Source: Polaromonas sp.
Lineage (GTDB): Bacteria; Pseudomonadota; Gammaproteobacteria; Burkholderiales; Burkholderiaceae_C
DNA length: 64,000 nucleotides
Direction of reading: 5' to 3'
Assembly (NCBI GenBank): GCA_030654695.1
Contig: JAURWY010000025.1
Location: 62,001 to 126,000, forward strand
Position 1 is the first letter of the stretch. Every line of letters begins with the position of its first letter. The notes below the pieces were generated by a model. It did not search any database. It worked only from the letters and a program-made list of their open reading frames with translations, and was not told the DNA's origin. Shown here piece after piece: positions 27,599 to 35,883 of the stretch. The position numbers and the translations under genes were made by a program.

Positions 27599-27769
27599 TT
27601 AGCAATTTAGTAAGCTGACAGTTTATGGCTATGGCAACAATGTATCTATTAAGTTTTCTTCATGACCCTGATAGTTATGCGGTCGCGAATGAATAATATT
27701 TTCTGAACCTCCGTGGGACAGGATTGGGACAAACAGGCTTTTTAGAGCCGTTTGAGGCGTTGATTTGTC

Positions 27770-27905
27770 AGCGCTCACTTCTACGCAATAAACGTCCCCG
27801 ACTTGCCGCCGTGCTTTTCCAGCAGCTTCACATCGGTGATAGTCATACCCCGGTCGACGGCTTTGCACATGTCGTAGATGGTGAGCAGGGCGAGTTGGAC
27901 GGCGG
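27770..27905. repeat. Left attachment-site repeat (moaC 3' end copy)
   Basis: A 136-bp segment matching 35390-35525 with 9 mismatches (about 93%). The longest identical runs are 27, 22 and 34-35 bp, for example the run ending at 27881. This is the displaced original moaC 3' end or its counterpart left by integration. Confidence 0.93.
27781..27905 (-). pseudogene. moaC C-terminal relic
   Basis: Encodes the last ~43 residues of MoaC ([19 protein letters not shown] through GKSGTFIA) with no start region; upstream sequence is unrelated. A GAG-to-TAG change ends the frame two codons before the normal end (FIA-stop instead of FIAEK-stop). A frame continues into it from upstream island sequence (about 27987), but it has no ribosome binding site and crosses a terminator. 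It is a leftover of integration. Confidence 0.9.
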
Positions 27906-27906
27906 T

Positions 27907-28164: not shown

Positions 28165-28398
28165 TCAGCCCTTGGGTGCCAGCAGCGCTGACACGGTCGT
28201 ATTGAGCCGGTTGGCAAGCTTCAACAGCGTGTCGAGGCTTGGGTTGCCTACGCAGCGTTCAATCTTCGACACAACAGTCCTGTCGACCTCCGCATCCAGC
28301 GCCAGCCTCTCCTGAGCTACCCCTTGAGCTTTACGAACTTGCTTGATGTTTAAGGCGAGGTCGCTCTTCAGCTGCTCCATTGATTGATGTGTCGACAT
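28165..28398 (-). CDS. XRE-family transcriptional regulator
   Basis: A 77-aa protein that is essentially one helix-turn-helix domain of the XRE/Cro type: IKQVRKAQGVAQERLALDAE followed by the recognition helix region VDRTVVSKIERCVGNPSLDT and the closing helices LLKLANRLNTTVSALL. It probably represses the island's divergent promoter region, where three copies of an AACAAC-type element lie between it and the next gene (28405-28490). Its ATG is at 28398. It could regulate excision or the small exported genes; no separate excisionase is recognised. Confidence 0.85.
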   Translation of the reverse strand: MSTHQSMEQLKSDLALNIKQVRKAQGVAQERLALDAEVDRTVVSKIERCVGNPSLDTLLKLANRLNTTVSALLAPKG

Positions 28399-29931: not shown

Positions 29932-31188
29932 TTACTCCTTCTCCTTATTCACTACTTTTATCCATTCTTCATTCATTCTTTCCTTAGTTCTTCCTTCATC
30001 CTTTTCTTTAACAGCAAAGGAGTCATGCACCGATAGCATTGGTACTTCTTCGTTCAAAGCCCACTTGAACATTCGTAGACCAATTTCTCCTTCTAGCTTC
30101 TGCATCCTTACCCCTGCGTCGTTGAAGAAGATCTTTTCCTTGTTAACCCAAGGGAACAGCTTCTCAGTAGCTTCAAGCATTGCTTGGAAGGTTTTTATTG
30201 GAATTGGTGTTGTGTTCTTCTCCCTGCTGCACTCAAGCATTAGTCCCCCTTTCTGCTTGAGACTTGTCGCTCCAATGCAGACGGTGATGAACTTCTTTGT
30301 CAGGTTTCTGTTGATTGATGCATCACCACCAACTGCACGAACTAGGTCGCTGTAAGGGTCTGCTGACAAATCTTCTCCAACCAGCTTAGATGCCATGCGC
30401 AGATGGTTGCAGCTGAAATCTGGTTCTGCCATGGCGGAGCCATCAAGCAGGGTGTTTTTTCTAATCGGTACACGTCTGTTGACGATGTTCTGAAAGGCGT
30501 TGTGGAGCCTTCCAGCCCTTTCCACGCTCTTGCTGAATGCTCTGGTTGTTGGGCCTTTCTTTGCCCAGCTATGTTCCGCCATGAATAGGTTGTATCGGAG
30601 AAGCAATGCCTCGTTTTCCTCATAAAGGGCCAGTGCAGGTGCTTCACCCAAAGGAAATTCATTGAACTTGTGATAGCAGGGTAAAAGCATGTCATTCTCA
30701 ACTTCATACAAGCAGTCAGAGAAGTGGTTGAGGAGCTTTTCTCCAGCAAAGTATTGGCTGCTTTTTGATGGTGCTGGGCCTGTTGACCGATAGCCATGGA
30801 GCGTACTTCTAATCCAATCTTCCTTGATGAGCACCGGCAGTATGCGTTGAAGTCTGCGGCGGTCAAAACCCAGCTTACCTAGCAGCTGGTCGCCATGATG
30901 ATGCTCAGTTCTTGTGCTGATTGCAACATTCTTGAAGTCAAAAGCCGCTGCCAAGATTCCCAGCAATAGGTGCTTGATGTTTGAGCGATGTTGGTTGACG
31001 ACTGCCTTGTCTCGACTCTTGGTTACCTTCGATGTTAGATCGTCAAGAATTTCTTCAAGATCACTCTTTCTTAAAGACAGATCACTCAGCCTGTAGGGTA
31101 GGAGCTGAGTTGAGGCGTCATTTGCTGGAACGCCCTTGTCAATAATTAGTTGCGCCAGTTCACGACTGTTGCTTTTTTCTAAATTCAT
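29932..31188 (-). CDS. Polymerase-like protein with family-A palm motifs
   Basis: 418 aa, start ATG 31188 with AGAGGAAA upstream. I see no exonuclease or primase domain. The C-terminal half shows a set of motifs like those of family-A DNA polymerases and single-subunit RNA polymerases: motif A EPDFSCNHLRM with Asp257, a DPY at 277-279, motif B region RNLTKKF with Arg294 and Lys298/299 and Gly306, and motif C VHDSF with His388 and Asp389. The N-terminal 200 residues are helical and unknown. I recall uncharacterised bacterial proteins with E-D-F/Y-S...H-x-R and VHDSF motifs, but no established function. It is AT-rich and shares the island with a nuclease-repeat protein. Template, primer need and activity are not known. 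Confidence 0.6.
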   Translation of the reverse strand: MNLEKSNSRELAQLIIDKGVPANDASTQLLPYRLSDLSLRKSDLEEILDDLTSKVTKSRDKAVVNQHRSNIKHLLLGILAAAFDFKNVAISTRTEHHHGDQLLGKLGFDRRRLQRILPVLIKEDWIRSTLHGYRSTGPAPSKSSQYFAGEKLLNHFSDCLYEVENDMLLPCYHKFNEFPLGEAPALALYEENEALLLRYNLFMAEHSWAKKGPTTRAFSKSVERAGRLHNAFQNIVNRRVPIRKNTLLDGSAMAEPDFSCNHLRMASKLVGEDLSADPYSDLVRAVGGDASINRNLTKKFITVCIGATSLKQKGGLMLECSREKNTTPIPIKTFQAMLEATEKLFPWVNKEKIFFNDAGVRMQKLEGEIGLRMFKWALNEEVPMLSVHDSFAVKEKDEGRTKERMNEEWIKVVNKEKE

Positions 31189-31429: not shown

Positions 31430-31672
31430 ATGAAAAACTTGATGGCCGTTAGCTCGGCGGCACCCCTTGGGGGTAGGGGCTTATTGGTATTTCTCACCCT
31501 ATCTGGTAATAAAGTGACTGACCTGCGCCCTGTGTGTCTAAACTGCCATGCTATGTTGCATCGACAGCGTCCAGCACAGTTGAAGTTGACCACTTTGCGC
31601 GCTGTGCCACGGGCTAAACCAACGCGGCTTTTTACGTTACTATTTTCAAACGTTAATTCAGGTCATGAGTAG
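31430..31672 (+). pseudogene. HNH endonuclease relic
   Basis: The only recognisable stretch is 31511-31603, encoding KVTDLRPVCLNCHAMLHR and the following residues, the conserved C-terminal half of HNH nucleases (x-DL-x-PVC-x-NCH-x-M-x-H). The first HNH His and all upstream domains are missing. The frame from 31430 has no ribosome binding site and runs a few bases into the next gene. Of the gap 31189-31664, the rest holds nothing that I can identify. Confidence 0.55.
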
Positions 31673-33746
31673 AAATACAAAATGGCGCCCTTTTAAGCAA
31701 GCCCGAGCCTTTATGCACGGGCAGGGCCTGCGCTCTCAAAAGGAGTTCTATGCGTGGTGTAAAACTGGGCAGCGCCCGAGCGATATCCCGACAAATCCGC
31801 ATCGGGAATACGCCGCCCAAGGGTGGGTGTCATGCTCGGATTGGTTGGGTCTGGAAAAGGTCATGGCCATCCATTGGTGTCCCTTCATGCAGGCTCGTGC
31901 GATTGTGCGATCTAAGCACTTCAAGACTCGTGGCGAGTTCCTCGCCTGGTGCAGAACCGACCAGCGCCCGAGCGACATCCCGACAAATCCGCAGCGGGAA
32001 TACGCCGCCCAAGGGTGGGTGTCATACCTGGATTGGCTTGGATTGGAAAAAAGGCGCTCTCGCGCTTCGTCCTATCCGGACTACGACACGGCCCATGCCT
32101 GGGTCTTAGCTCAAGGCTGGAACGACAAGTCAGAGTTTGATGCCGTAGTTAAGGCTCAAAAGTTACCCTCTTTTGTGCCCAAGGCACCGCATGTGGTCTA
32201 CAAAGAGTGTGGATGGGTGGACTGGATAGGGTGGTTAGGAAGTGGCAAACGGCGACTTGGCGATTGGCGTGAGTTTGGCAATGCGCGCCAGTGGGCCCAG
32301 GATTGGGCACCAACGCACGGTATTACCTCTTCGGAGCAATGGGTTGCTGCGTGTCAGGCGGGGCGCATCCCTGCGGACATTCCAAGGCGTCCTGACCGCG
32401 TTTACGCCGAGATCGGCTGGAAGTCCTGGGGCGACTGGCTCGTTACCAGTCGGTTAAGACGCAGGAATCAGCCCTGGCGGTCGTTCGCAGAGGCACGTGC
32501 TTTCGTGCATGCGCTTAGCCTCGGCTCGTGGGAGGAATGGCGGGGCTTTTCCCGTTCGGCAGATCGCCCCCACGATATCCCAGCCGCTCCCTACAGGGCT
32601 TATCAGCTTGATGGCTGGGCGGGATTTGACGACTGGGTCGGCCTGCCCACGCGTCGTAAATATGGGCGCTCGCGTCAAGAGCAGCACATCGTTATGGAAT
32701 TGCAGCAGCTTCTTGGCGGGGGCGTAGAAGACGAAAAGCGTCGATTTGCGGCGGACGGCCCCCTGCTCCGTGTGGATTACCTCCACGAAGGCATGGAACT
32801 CGTAGTTGAATACGATGGCTCGCACTGGCATCGCAATCGAGTGCTAGAGGACAAGCGGAAGAGCAACATCATCCGGTCTGCCGGTTGGCGACTGATTCGC
32901 ATCAGAGAGCAGCCCCTGGCTCTGCTACACAAGGGCAACGTCGCGGTGCGCCAGGCTTGCACTCCCGGTGACGCCGTGCGTGCGGTGTTGAAGCTGATGA
33001 TGCAGCAAGGCTTAGGTAGTGCAAAGATGCGGCTCCGATGTCGCACTTACTTAACAAGATCAGACCACCTAACAACGTCACCACTACCGCCTGTGCCCCG
33101 TTGGCGTCCCTTCGATGAGGCACGAGCATTTTCGCGCGCGCTTGGCTTCCAAAGTAGTGAGCAGTGGAGAAAATGGGCGACCTCTGACCAGCGTCCCCCA
33201 GATATACCGAACTCACCTGGCGTACTCTATGCCGGGCATGGCTGGGCAGGTATGGCCGATTGGCTTGGCTACCACCCCGTCATCAGCCGTGGAAACAAAC
33301 TCCTGCCTTTCAAACAGGCGCGCGCGGTTGTGCGTTCATGGGCACGTCAGCAGGGAGAGATATCAAACAAGCGAAGGCACTGGGTCGAAGCGGCCGAGCA
33401 AGGCAGTATTCCTGAGGGCGTGCCAGCCAATCCGCAACTAGCTTATAAGGGCAAAGGCTGGCGTGGCATGCCGGACTGGTACGGGCGACCTGCATCGCCG
33501 AGAAATCTGCCTTTCCCTTGCGATACCAAATATCTGCCCTTTGAGCAGGCACGCAAAGTCGTGCGTAGGTGGGTCAAATCACTGCCCGCCAGTCCGACAC
33601 TGTGGACCCAATGGCTACGGGCTGTCAGGGATGGCTCATTACCGCCCGGTGTGCCCCGCCATGCGGGTCTTGTTTACCGCTCTCAAGGCTGGAGGGGCTA
33701 TGAGGATTGGTTCGGACGGCAACCAGGTGGATCAGCTCGTAATTAA
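31665..33746 (+). CDS. Eight phage-integrase-type repeats enclosing a PD-(D/E)XK nuclease-like domain
   Basis: A 693-aa protein. Eight repeats of about 57-65 residues share W-x-PF-x-x-AR...W...DIP-x-x-P...Y...GW-x-x-x-x-DWLG, matching the PHINT_rpt type of repeat: 7-65, 71-129, 137-195, 201-262, 271-330, then 480-536, 546-610 and 623-686. Between repeats five and six (about 336-440) lies a restriction-endonuclease-like domain: RVDYLHEGMELVVEYDGSHWH with Asp371, Glu382 and Asp384, then DKRKSNIIRSAGWRLIRIRE, as in DUF559/Vsr-type nucleases. Repeats 1 and 2 are nearly identical in DNA, so duplication is recent. GC content is closer to the chromosome than that of its island neighbours. I infer DNA binding by the repeats and cleavage by the insert; the biological role is unknown, defence being one possibility. 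Confidence 0.78.
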   Translation: MSRNTKWRPFKQARAFMHGQGLRSQKEFYAWCKTGQRPSDIPTNPHREYAAQGWVSCSDWLGLEKVMAIHWCPFMQARAIVRSKHFKTRGEFLAWCRTDQRPSDIPTNPQREYAAQGWVSYLDWLGLEKRRSRASSYPDYDTAHAWVLAQGWNDKSEFDAVVKAQKLPSFVPKAPHVVYKECGWVDWIGWLGSGKRRLGDWREFGNARQWAQDWAPTHGITSSEQWVAACQAGRIPADIPRRPDRVYAEIGWKSWGDWLVTSRLRRRNQPWRSFAEARAFVHALSLGSWEEWRGFSRSADRPHDIPAAPYRAYQLDGWAGFDDWVGLPTRRKYGRSRQEQHIVMELQQLLGGGVEDEKRRFAADGPLLRVDYLHEGMELVVEYDGSHWHRNRVLEDKRKSNIIRSAGWRLIRIREQPLALLHKGNVAVRQACTPGDAVRAVLKLMMQQGLGSAKMRLRCRTYLTRSDHLTTSPLPPVPRWRPFDEARAFSRALGFQSSEQWRKWATSDQRPPDIPNSPGVLYAGHGWAGMADWLGYHPVISRGNKLLPFKQARAVVRSWARQQGEISNKRRHWVEAAEQGSIPEGVPANPQLAYKGKGWRGMPDWYGRPASPRNLPFPCDTKYLPFEQARKVVRRWVKSLPASPTLWTQWLRAVRDGSLPPGVPRHAGLVYRSQGWRGYEDWFGRQPGGSARN
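31770..32025 (+). repeat. 64-bp direct repeat within the repeat-protein gene
   Basis: 31770-31833 and 31962-32025 are identical at 62 of 64 bases, offset 192 bp (64 codons, one protein repeat). This marks a recent duplication of one repeat unit. Confidence 0.93.
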
Positions 33747-34335: not shown

Positions 34336-35319
34336 CTACCCGAGCTTCAGTGCCAATGCCTGAGGACTCGGGTGGTAGTAACGCTGCAACATCTTCAGGC
34401 TCTTGTGCCCTGACACCGCCGCCAACTCGATCAGGTTGGGTAGCTTCGTCGCCATGAGTGTGATGGCTGTGTGCCGCAAGTCATGGAAGTGCAGATCGAT
34501 GAGGCCTGCCCGTTCTGCAGCTCTATCAAATGCCGCAGAAACCGCGCAGGAACTCATGGGAAAGACACGCCCGTCATCATTGCGGGGCAAGGCTGCAAAA
34601 GTTGCTACCGCCTTGACAGACAGAGGAACAATACGACGATCGCCATTCTTGGTCGTTTGAAGAATAGCCACCTGCTCTTGCAAGTTAATGTGCTTCCATT
34701 GCAGCGCGAGTAGTTCGCCCCTGCGCATGGCTGTTTCAAGAGCAATTTCAACAATTGGCTGCATCCATGGACTTCGGCGACCAAACGGTGTGAGTTCTGC
34801 AAAAAGTGCGGCCATTTCCTCAGACTTGAGAATACGATTTCTGCCTTGAGGGGATGATGGTTTTCTAACTAAGGCAACTGGGTTTGGAATGTTGACCCCC
34901 CACTCACGACGAGCATGGTTGAAAACTGAAGAGATGTAAGCCAGCTCACGAATGACAGTTCCATTGGAGACCGCTTGAAGCCGCAGGTCACGATGCTGCG
35001 CAAGCAATGTGGGAGTGAGCTTTGAAATCGGAAGATTGCTAAGTGTCCTTTGTTGAATTGCTCGTAGCTTGTATTGGTCCTCTGCCGCACCTTTCATCAA
35101 CGGGGTGACATCGGCCAAGTAGCGATCAATCAAATGGCTGAGGGTTGTCTTTTGCGCATCTGACTCGTCACGATAGATGCCTCTGAGTTGTTCATTGTCT
35201 TTTTCGTTGGCCCAGACTTGGGCGGCTTTCCGTGAGTCAAAAGACCTGACAAGAGTTGGGAAGCCCTTGATACGAATTCGGACTTGCCAAACATTGTTAC
35301 GATTCTGAATGGATGCCAT
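34336..35319 (-). CDS. int: Tyrosine recombinase (integrase) of the island
   Basis: A 327-aa site-specific recombinase. The N-terminal ~60 residues form an arm-binding/AP2-like segment (NVWQVRIRIKGFPTLVRSFDSRK style), then the SAM-like core-binding domain (60-150) and the catalytic domain with Arg199 (LETAMRRGELLALQWKH), His279-x-x-Arg282 (HDLRHT), His305 (VSGHKS) and Tyr314 (QRYYHP). Length is normal for the phage-type family. It starts 71 bp from the right moaC repeat and points into the island, the usual position next to attR. Two TGGAGCA repeats lie directly upstream (35334, 35345), where its own arm sites and promoter may overlap. Target: the 3' end of moaC, inferred from the duplicated repeats. 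Confidence 0.95.
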   Translation of the reverse strand: MASIQNRNNVWQVRIRIKGFPTLVRSFDSRKAAQVWANEKDNEQLRGIYRDESDAQKTTLSHLIDRYLADVTPLMKGAAEDQYKLRAIQQRTLSNLPISKLTPTLLAQHRDLRLQAVSNGTVIRELAYISSVFNHARREWGVNIPNPVALVRKPSSPQGRNRILKSEEMAALFAELTPFGRRSPWMQPIVEIALETAMRRGELLALQWKHINLQEQVAILQTTKNGDRRIVPLSVKAVATFAALPRNDDGRVFPMSSCAVSAAFDRAAERAGLIDLHFHDLRHTAITLMATKLPNLIELAAVSGHKSLKMLQRYYHPSPQALALKLG

Positions 35320-35351: not shown

Positions 35352-35389
35352 GATTACAAAATCAATCGTTCACCGAGGGAGATCACGTT

Positions 35390-35525
35390 AGCGCTCACTT
35401 CTCCGCAATAAACGTCCCCGACTTGCCGCCATGTTTCTCCAGCAGCTTCACATCGGTGATGGTCATGCCCCGGTCGACGGCTTTGCACATGTCGTAGATG
35501 GTCAGCAGGGCGAGTTGCACAGCGG
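35390..35525. repeat. Right attachment-site repeat (moaC 3' end)
   Basis: 136-bp partner of 27770-27905, covering the last 43 codons of the intact moaC, its stop codon and five bases beyond. It restores the moaC reading frame at this end of the island. Confidence 0.93.
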
Positions 35526-35883
35526 TCAGTGCTTCCATTTCGACACCCGTTTGGCCAACGGTTTCGACCGCGGCGTTGCAGATGATGCTGTTGGCGACTT
35601 CATCCGCATTGAACTCAACGGCAACCCGTGTCAGCGCCAGCGGATGGCAGAGCGGAATCAGATCGCTGGTTTTTTTGGCCGCCATGATGCCGGCGATGCG
35701 CGCGATGCCGAGCACGTCGCCCTTTTTGGCCGTGCCTTGCAAAATGATGGCCAGCGTGGCGGGGTGCATGATGATCCGGCCTTGCGCCACCGCGATTCGG
35801 TGGGTGGTGGCTTTGGCAGCCACGTCGACCATGTGGGCTTGGCCTTGTGCATCAAAATGTGTCAGTGCGGAGGTGCTTGTCAT
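35395..35883 (-). CDS. moaC: Cyclic pyranopterin monophosphate synthase
   Basis: Second enzyme activity in molybdenum cofactor synthesis, converting the MoaA product to cyclic pyranopterin monophosphate. The 162-aa protein is complete: [23 protein letters not shown] at the start (substrate-binding Lys and His), [11 protein letters not shown], and the conserved end [20 protein letters not shown], with KSGTFIAEK at the C-terminus. Length is standard. The last 43 codons lie within the island's attachment repeat and, if integration followed the usual path, came with the island. A truncated copy at 27781-27905 is the other end. No other moa gene is adjacent. The gene is transcribed divergently from the M48 protease. 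Confidence 0.95.

What the first reader, a model, noticed from the sequence alone, without database searches (positions are those of the whole stretch)
31665..33746. Eight integrase-type repeats split by a PD-(D/E)XK nuclease domain
Five repeats precede and three follow a nuclease-like insert with Asp371, Glu382/Asp384 and a DUF559-like AGWRLIRIRE tail. A modular repeat array around a nuclease suggests repeat-guided DNA recognition coupled to cleavage, possibly a defence or selfish-element function. The repeats vary at specific positions, as expected for a sequence-reading module.
Basis: partly seen in the sequence, partly recalled or inferred. Interest (0 to 1): 0.85.

Follow-up and report, generated by a model that had tools for sequence, protein, structure and literature searches.

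The report
Nuclease embedded in repeat array
A small mobile DNA element in a bacterium carries one protein in which a DNA-cutting domain of the homing-endonuclease type sits inside a string of eight similar modules that probably grip DNA; the modules belong to a little-studied repeat family.

Summary
One intact 693-aa ORF (31665-33746, +) holds eight ~64-aa repeats, five before and three after a nuclease domain. Related repeats occur in 113 of 114 genome loci and 16 of 17 viral loci fetched by a motif pattern; they link to Pfam INT_rpt through relatives, though the Pfam model itself does not score the window repeats. The insert is a Vsr/EDxHD/DUF559-type PD-(D/E)XK nuclease: its profile hits homing endonuclease I-Bth0305I, and its modelled fold matches that enzyme at Z 9.4. 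D371, E382, D384, H389 and D396 are kept in 32 of 32 aligned sequences (partly by selection). Two of ten viral relatives scanned lie inside inteins. A second, divergent protein with this layout (two repeats, nuclease, four repeats) exists in a Burkholderiales MAG, also beside an integrase. The gene is cargo of a 7.6-kb integrative element at the moaC 3' end. Best reading: a homing-type nuclease whose repeats hold DNA on both sides of the cut. DNA binding, cleavage and target are inferred. New variant of a known kind.

The parts
31665..33746 (+). repeat-nuclease gene, 693 aa, pI 10.2
31674..31865 (+). repeat R1 (aa 4-67)
31866..32057 (+). repeat R2 (aa 68-131); 125 of 174 compared bases equal to R1, the second half nearly identical
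32064..32255 (+). repeat R3 (aa 134-197), divergent
32256..32459 (+). repeat R4 (aa 198-265)
32466..32654 (+). repeat R5 (aa 268-330)
32655..33014 (+). Vsr/EDxHD/DUF559-type PD-(D/E)XK nuclease domain (aa 331-450); D371 at 32775, E382 at 32808, D384 at 32814, H389 at 32829, D396 at 32850
33093..33284 (+). repeat R6 (aa 477-540)
33291..33497 (+). repeat R7 (aa 543-611)
33519..33722 (+). repeat R8 (aa 619-686)
34336..35319 (-). tyrosine integrase of the element (Phage_integrase, E 8.2e-25)
   Evidence: a 47.7% identical integrase lies beside moaC in genome G688
27767..27906 (.). left 140-bp direct repeat (duplicate of the moaC 3' end), left end of the element
35387..35526 (.). right 140-bp direct repeat inside the 3' end of moaC (gene 35395-35883, -; the name moaC is my reading of the sequence, not from a call)
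28165..28398 (-). small helix-turn-helix regulator of the element (read by eye from the translation)
29932..31188 (-). other cargo gene, 418 aa, PHROG 4756 (E 6.8e-20), unknown function

Best explanation
It is a free-standing, homing-endonuclease-type DNA nuclease carried as cargo by a 7.6-kb integrative element. Eight small four-helix modules of the INT_rpt type line up along DNA, five on one side and three on the other, and place a Vsr/EDxHD-like PD-(D/E)XK nuclease over one site, where it makes a metal-dependent cut using D371, E382 and D384 with H389 and D396. Cutting an unoccupied or competing site would favour the spread of the gene or its element. Shown by sequence and models: the repeats, their predicted fold, the nuclease family and fold, conserved active-site residues, the element. 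Inferred: DNA binding by the repeats, sequence specificity, cleavage, homing.
For: Nuclease profile hits I-Bth0305I (3r3p, E 8.4e-6) and 3hrl (4e-5); fold match to 3r3p Z 9.4, rmsd 2.7, 95 of 97 residues, and to Vsr 1cw0 Z 8.3. 32 of 32 members of A9 match MTES_1575 and 30 of 32 DUF559 at E<=0.01. Of 10 viral relatives scanned out of 36 loci, 2 (L216, L221) hold the nuclease inside intein/Hint matches, the homing arrangement, and a third (L230) next to one; the intein_splicing scores are under Pfam's cut-off, Hint_2 in L216 is over it. INT_rpt-type repeats occur with C-terminal nuclease domains of this superfamily in L020, L029, L030 and L033, with an HNH-like region in the uncultured phage LR745208 (L005, read by eye) and with a recombinase-type domain (Integrase_2) in a VPA1269-family protein. 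A second protein, L077, has 2 repeats - nuclease - 4 repeats, next to an integrase. The same nuclease type sits inside another repeat array (4 DUF4379 - nuclease - 2 DUF4379, L183) and behind DUF4379 arrays in one Streptomyces and one Kitasatospora plasmid (5 modules each). Six columns are hypervariable within arrays with pN/pS 0.91-1.11, against 0.19-0.21 for most other columns. The protein is basic, pI 10.2. Modular DNA-binding domains beside phage homing nucleases are established (PMC3943268, passages; PMC12350094, passages).
Against: No target site is known and no occupied/unoccupied pair for the gene itself was seen. No solved structure matches the repeats (best E 0.95), so DNA binding is unproven. 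pN/pS near 1 fits relaxed constraint as well as diversification. Foldseek alone gave no nuclease match below E 0.05, and a mitoribosome protein ties with 3r3p at Z 9.4 (rmsd 5.0). The gene is not in an intron or intein as far as seen. It is rare: 1 of 87 genomes of the genus has such repeats.
Confidence: 0.5

Rival explanations
1. Anti-phage or anti-plasmid defence nuclease: the repeats recognise invading DNA and the nuclease cuts it, as cargo of a genomic island.
For: It is island cargo beside an integrase, as many defence genes are (general knowledge). INT_rpt-type repeats also occur behind an Mrr-like nuclease plus helicase in L109, and 50 of 131 genome-contig repeat ORFs carry helicase-like motifs (regex only), an arrangement that looks restriction-like.
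Against: No PADLOC model beyond a weak homing-endonuclease hit; no methylase or immunity domain among the five island proteins scanned with Pfam; nuclease relatives in inteins point to homing.
Confidence: 0.27
2. Accessory factor of the integrative element: the repeats bind element or att DNA and the nuclease or repeats help integration, excision or exclusion of rival elements at moaC.
For: An integrase is the next clear gene downstream in the window and the gene just upstream in L077; repeats of the same type are part of a VPA1269-family protein with Integrase_2 in a gamma-mobile-trio locus; another element uses the moaC site in the same genus (G688).
Against: None of the other 86 genus genomes searched, G688 and G669 among them, has such repeats, so the function is not needed for use of the site; the window and L077 integrases have different N-terminal domains.
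Confidence: 0.13
3. Decaying or non-DNA-binding protein: the repeats bind protein or RNA, or the gene is no longer active.
For: Only one copy was found in the genus; neighbouring ORF 31430-31672 looks like a nuclease remnant (read by eye); I found no test of INT_rpt function.
Against: Single intact 693-aa frame, the conserved nuclease residues kept, eight repeats all scoring well.
Confidence: 0.1

Closest known systems
EDxHD/Vsr-type homing endonucleases (I-Bth0305I)
   Same: nuclease profile and fold; acidic residues; extended DNA-binding region expected (PMC3943268, passages)
   Different: DNA-binding part here would be an eight-unit INT_rpt-type array with the nuclease inside it; not seen in an intron or intein
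Phage group II intron HEGs with 3-5 CapR/DUF4379/DUF723-like domains plus EDxHD/Vsr-like nuclease (PMC12350094, passages read)
   Same: array of ~60-aa modules plus the same nuclease superfamily; the window nuclease is 35-39% identical to nucleases of three actinobacterial plasmids, two of them shown to follow DUF4379 arrays
   Different: other repeat family (no DUF4379 here), nuclease in the middle, gene is cargo of an integrative element
Gamma-mobile-trio proteins (VPA1269 family, L004; I recall the name GmtZ)
   Same: INT_rpt repeats in a mobile-element protein
   Different: they carry Integrase_2 and sit with gmtY and gmtX; the window protein has neither
Mrr_cat_2 - helicase - repeat protein (L109)
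   Same: same repeat type, a nuclease in the same chain
   Different: large helicase present, repeats only C-terminal, nuclease of another family

Membership tests
Pfam PF14882 INT_rpt | match to the curated Pfam model | tested here: not met
   No hit in the window protein at E<=1, in four repeat fragments (R1, R2, R5, R6) at E<=10, or in the gene when the whole genome was searched
Pfam PF14882 INT_rpt | homology through relatives that do match the model | tested here: met
   The A1 profile (which includes the window repeats) finds L004 repeats (8 domains, 22.9-46.2 bits) and L025; L083, L080 and L066. PF14882 scores these over its cut-off; L077, L010, L005 and L033 match it below the cut-off
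EDxHD/Vsr homing endonucleases | Vsr-like PD-(D/E)XK fold | tested here: met
   3r3p Z 9.4 over 95 of 97 residues; 1cw0 Z 8.3; core strands and helices. Model pLDDT 72.9, so moderate
EDxHD/Vsr homing endonucleases | conserved catalytic residues | tested here: met
   D371, E382, D384, H389, D396 invariant in A9 (partly selected); H389 not in the L033-type nucleases. The letter pattern EDxHD itself was not checked against the defining paper (not held)
EDxHD/Vsr homing endonucleases | cuts a long specific site and drives its own spread | not testable with these tools
   needs biochemistry and population data
DUF4379/CapR-array HEGs (PMC12350094) | DUF4379- or CapR-like modules | tested here: not met
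   no DUF4379 or CapR in the window protein at E<=1
Gamma-mobile-trio | Integrase_2 domain and gmtX/gmtY neighbours | tested here: not met
   no Integrase_2 in the protein or in the four other island proteins scanned; compare L004. gmtX/gmtY were not searched by their own models
known anti-phage defence systems (PADLOC 2.0.0) | match to a defence model | tested here: not met
   only HEase at E 0.028
TALE-like one-repeat-per-base code | fixed residues that dictate the base contacted | not testable with these tools
   six hypervariable columns exist but no binding data

The most novel reading that the evidence does not exclude
INT_rpt-type repeats are a general modular DNA-reading system: each ~64-aa unit contacts a few base pairs through the six hypervariable positions at the starts of its second and third helices, arrays are re-built by duplication and recombination of units (as between R1 and R2), and nature plugs the same array into different effectors: a homing-type nuclease here, HNH-like enzymes, recombinases, and Mrr or methyltransferase-bearing helicases.
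Probability: 0.2. Interest if true: 0.9.

Novelty: new variant of a known kind. Interest (0 to 1): 0.6.

Why it matters
INT_rpt-type repeats turned up in bacteria, archaea and large viral contigs, joined to recombinase, helicase and nuclease domains, yet I found no solved structure and no paper on their function in the library searched. A protein that joins eight of them to a recognisable homing-type nuclease gives a simple read-out (a cut) for what the repeats bind, and so makes the function of the repeat family directly testable.

Tried and rejected
Single-sequence scan of viral contigs found nothing, and nuclease-only tblastn against phages found nothing. The repeat alignment A1 was too variable for the search for related loci, so I used a DNA pattern instead. 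Two scans with the L033-type proteins only returned the same four contigs. Full-length AlphaFold model: repeats mostly 80-93, nuclease poor, pTM 0.26; its Foldseek searches gave no useful PDB match and two viral ones (A0A292GIR6, E 3.6e-6; a Klosneuvirus helicase, E 2.4e-3). Foldseek on the nuclease model gave weak matches only, T7 endonuclease I first at E 0.054; VIA-align gave the clear one, though its joint-first row is a mitoribosome protein with rmsd 5.0.

The count of distinct six-residue combinations (690 of 699) was dropped as evidence: control columns give nearly the same share (541 of 558 and 619 of 639, against 659 of 668 for the six). pN/pS near 1 is not taken as proof of positive selection. 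In the window's own eight repeats the six columns do not stand out clearly. TALE membership, GMT membership and a named defence system were considered and not adopted (see Membership tests).

Papers: PF14882 occurs in one paper only, a modelling table (PMC8078820, passage). Six papers hold 'gamma-mobile-trio' (listing only, none opened). The I-Bth0305I paper is not held. EDxHD and DUF4379 papers: listings, passages of two.

Rows dropped before counts: L030, L031 and L035 were left out of the repeat statistics as near-copies, and repeats with more than 8 gaps were left out (672 used of 741). For A9, of 36 viral loci L211, L217 and L227 were left out as near-copies and L233, L236 and L238 as the most divergent rows (33 prepared, 30 used); by eye all three keep the residues aligned to E382, D384, G385 and H389. 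In one search, 11 loci that only repeat the window were skipped. My note said all 17 viral loci were positive; the count is 16 of 17 (L036 without). The genome searches scored only a capped number of candidates per genome, so misses are possible.

Full report
What is there. The window holds an intact ORF of 693 aa at 31665-33746 on the + strand. I aligned its eight repeats and tested them with a profile made from 720 repeats of other loci: 8 of 8 are found with i-E 3.6e-15 to 3.2e-27, 467.9 bits in all, against at most 11.4 bits in 1000 shuffles. The 720 had been gathered with a profile that includes the window's repeats, so this is strong but not wholly independent. Five repeats precede and three follow a domain of about 120 aa. 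R1 and R2 are a partial recent duplication: 125 of 174 bases agree, and the second half is nearly identical while the first differs (columns).

The repeats. A degenerate pattern for P.DIP..P...Y...GW returned 17 viral loci and 114 loci of bacterial and archaeal genomes, where the scan stopped at its limit; 16 and 113 of them hold ORFs with repeats by profile, 1 to 12 per ORF. Pfam PF14882 (INT_rpt, Integrase repeat unit) scores several of these over its cut-off (L083, L080, L066, L025 and the VPA1269-family protein L004) and others below it (L077, L010, L005, L033), but not the window repeats, so the link is through relatives. AlphaFold on the full protein with 19 eight-repeat arrays predicts each repeat as about four short helices with pLDDT mostly 80-93, and pTM 0.26, which I read as independent beads without fixed mutual positions. 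No solved structure matches at a useful E-value.

Variable positions. Over 672 repeats, and counting only differences between repeats of the same array in 33 internally similar arrays, columns 22, 23, 26, 41, 43 and 44 differ in 79-85% of pairs while columns such as F7, A10, W25, P35, P39, Y46, W51, W57 and G59 hardly change. The same six come out on top in 20 of 20 half-samples. They lie at the starts of the second and third predicted helices (columns set). In pairs of at least 75, 80 and 85% DNA identity (155, 64 and 21 pairs) pN/pS is 0.91, 1.01 and 1.11 there, 0.63-0.69 at other variable columns, and 0.19-0.21 at the rest. The three column groups were set. This is what a reading surface would look like, but relaxed surface positions would give the same. 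In the window's own array the contrast is weak, and counts of distinct combinations do not discriminate.

The nuclease. Weak single-sequence hits to MTES_1575 and DUF559, to a PHROG labelled HNH endonuclease and to a homing-endonuclease model became firm with relatives. A scan of viral contigs gave 36 loci. In the alignment of the window, L077 and 30 viral domains (A9), D371, E382, D384, G385, H389 and D396 are invariant; the 30 rows were picked by a pattern that includes E382, D384 and G385. 32 of 32 match MTES_1575 and 30 of 32 DUF559. The A9 profile hits I-Bth0305I (3r3p, E 8.4e-6) and 3hrl (4e-5). Modelled alone the domain has pLDDT 72.9 and pTM 0.69 with the order helix, strands, helix, strand. 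Foldseek gives only weak matches, but structural alignment of its candidates puts 3r3p at Z 9.4 (rmsd 2.7, 95 residues), 3hrl at 8.8 and Vsr 1cw0 at 8.3, with a mitoribosome protein also at 9.4 but rmsd 5.0. Of 10 viral relatives scanned with Pfam (of 36 loci), two hold this nuclease inside intein or Hint matches (L216, L221), one next to such a match (L230), and three have DUF4379 (L212, L214, L215, the last weak).

Relatives with the same plan. L077, a Burkholderiales MAG, encodes two repeats, the nuclease and four repeats, next to a tyrosine integrase. Its nuclease is 27-29% identical to the window's, less than the 35-39% shared with nucleases of three actinobacterial plasmids, two of which follow DUF4379 arrays, so independent assembly is possible. 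L183 has four DUF4379 modules, the nuclease and two more DUF4379 (six matches; the split read from the sequence). Four viral proteins, two of them near-identical, carry three repeats and a C-terminal nuclease of the same superfamily. Among the 160 ORFs with repeats, the A9 nuclease profile hits five: one of 131 from genomes, four of 24 from viral contigs. The uncultured phage LR745208 has five repeats behind a region I read as HNH-like; Pfam scored nothing in that protein at 0.01. The VPA1269-family protein of a gamma-mobile-trio locus joins the repeats to Integrase_2. L109 joins them to Mrr_cat_2 and a helicase, and L068 and L141 to an SNF2-type helicase and a methyltransferase.

Distribution near the window. 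With the full protein, 1 of 299 family genomes matched, the window's own. With the repeat profile, 1 of 87 in the genus, 2 of 369 in the class draw and 4 of 398 in the phylum draw, the own genome included each time. With the nuclease profile 20 of 349 order genomes matched, own included; none of the 19 others has these repeats in the fetched locus.

The carrier. A 140-bp direct repeat (93%) lies at 27767-27906 and 35387-35526, the right copy being the 3' end of the gene I read as moaC. In G669 a 39-bp match to the end of the left flank (79%) and the whole 140-bp moaC end (90%) are contiguous, as at an empty site; but G669 also has a partial second copy of the moaC end 0.9 kb away and other genes between this place and the rest of the left flank, so the picture is not clean. 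In G688 an integrase 47.7% identical to the window's lies next to moaC, and a second copy of the moaC end lies about 24 kb away. I conclude that the repeat-nuclease is cargo of an integrative element of about 7.6 kb; G+C falls to 0.41 in part of it, against about 0.59 outside.

How it most likely works. Shown: array, nuclease family, predicted fold, conserved residues, mobile carrier. Inferred: the basic protein (pI 10.2) holds DNA on both sides of the nuclease through its repeats and cuts in between, as a homing endonuclease with modular DNA-binding arms. A review and a recent paper describe such arms (NUMODs) beside EDxHD nucleases and a large outgroup with CapR/DUF4379-like modules (PMC3943268 and PMC12350094; passages read). 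Rivals are defence, a helper of the element, and a protein without DNA activity.

What is new. Repeat arrays next to this nuclease superfamily are known in print with other repeats (PMC12350094). I found no paper on INT_rpt-type repeats with a nuclease, nor on their function, in searches of the open-licence PMC library; most subscription papers and bioRxiv are not covered, and the six gamma-mobile-trio papers were not opened. I file it as a new variant of a known kind.

Noticed in passing
window 29932-31188 (-): 418-aa cargo gene matching PHROG 4756 (E 6.8e-20) and proteins of seven Aeromonas, Pseudoalteromonas and Vibrio phage records over 48% of its length; its C-terminus (DFSCNHLRM ... VHDSFAV) looks like motifs of family A DNA polymerases or single-subunit RNA polymerases (by eye, from recall).
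   Followed up: partly
window 31430-31672 (+): Short ORF with LRPVCLNCHAMLHRQRP, like the C-terminal part of an HNH (McrA-like) nuclease, directly upstream of and overlapping the start of the repeat-nuclease; possibly a remnant (by eye).
   Followed up: no
window 31743-31858 and 31935-32050: R1 and R2 share a nearly identical second half but differ in the first, as after partial duplication or gene conversion of modules.
   Followed up: partly
L109:4298-7126 (-); 50 of 131 genome-contig repeat ORFs with helicase-like motifs: Frequent long proteins: an N-terminal region of about 550-750 aa with helicase-like motifs (in L109, the one scanned whole, an Mrr_cat_2 nuclease plus helicase) followed by several C-terminal INT_rpt-type repeats; looks like a restriction-like class that I did not look up.
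   Followed up: partly
L068:1933-6864 (+), L141:2-3163 (+): Repeats joined to an SNF2-type helicase and a Methyltransf_8 domain in one chain; the viral proteins L032 and L035 look alike by eye.
   Followed up: no
L183:1000-2724 (-): Six DUF4379 modules split 4 + 2 by a DUF559-type nuclease: same plan as the window protein with another module.
   Followed up: partly
L216:2-3952 (+): Viral ORF with phage Mu F-like, Hint/intein with this nuclease, and topoisomerase IB domains in one 1317-aa frame.
   Followed up: no
L172/L173 (genome G688), G677:C60: The 3' end of moaC looks like an integration site used by other elements in the genus.
   Followed up: partly
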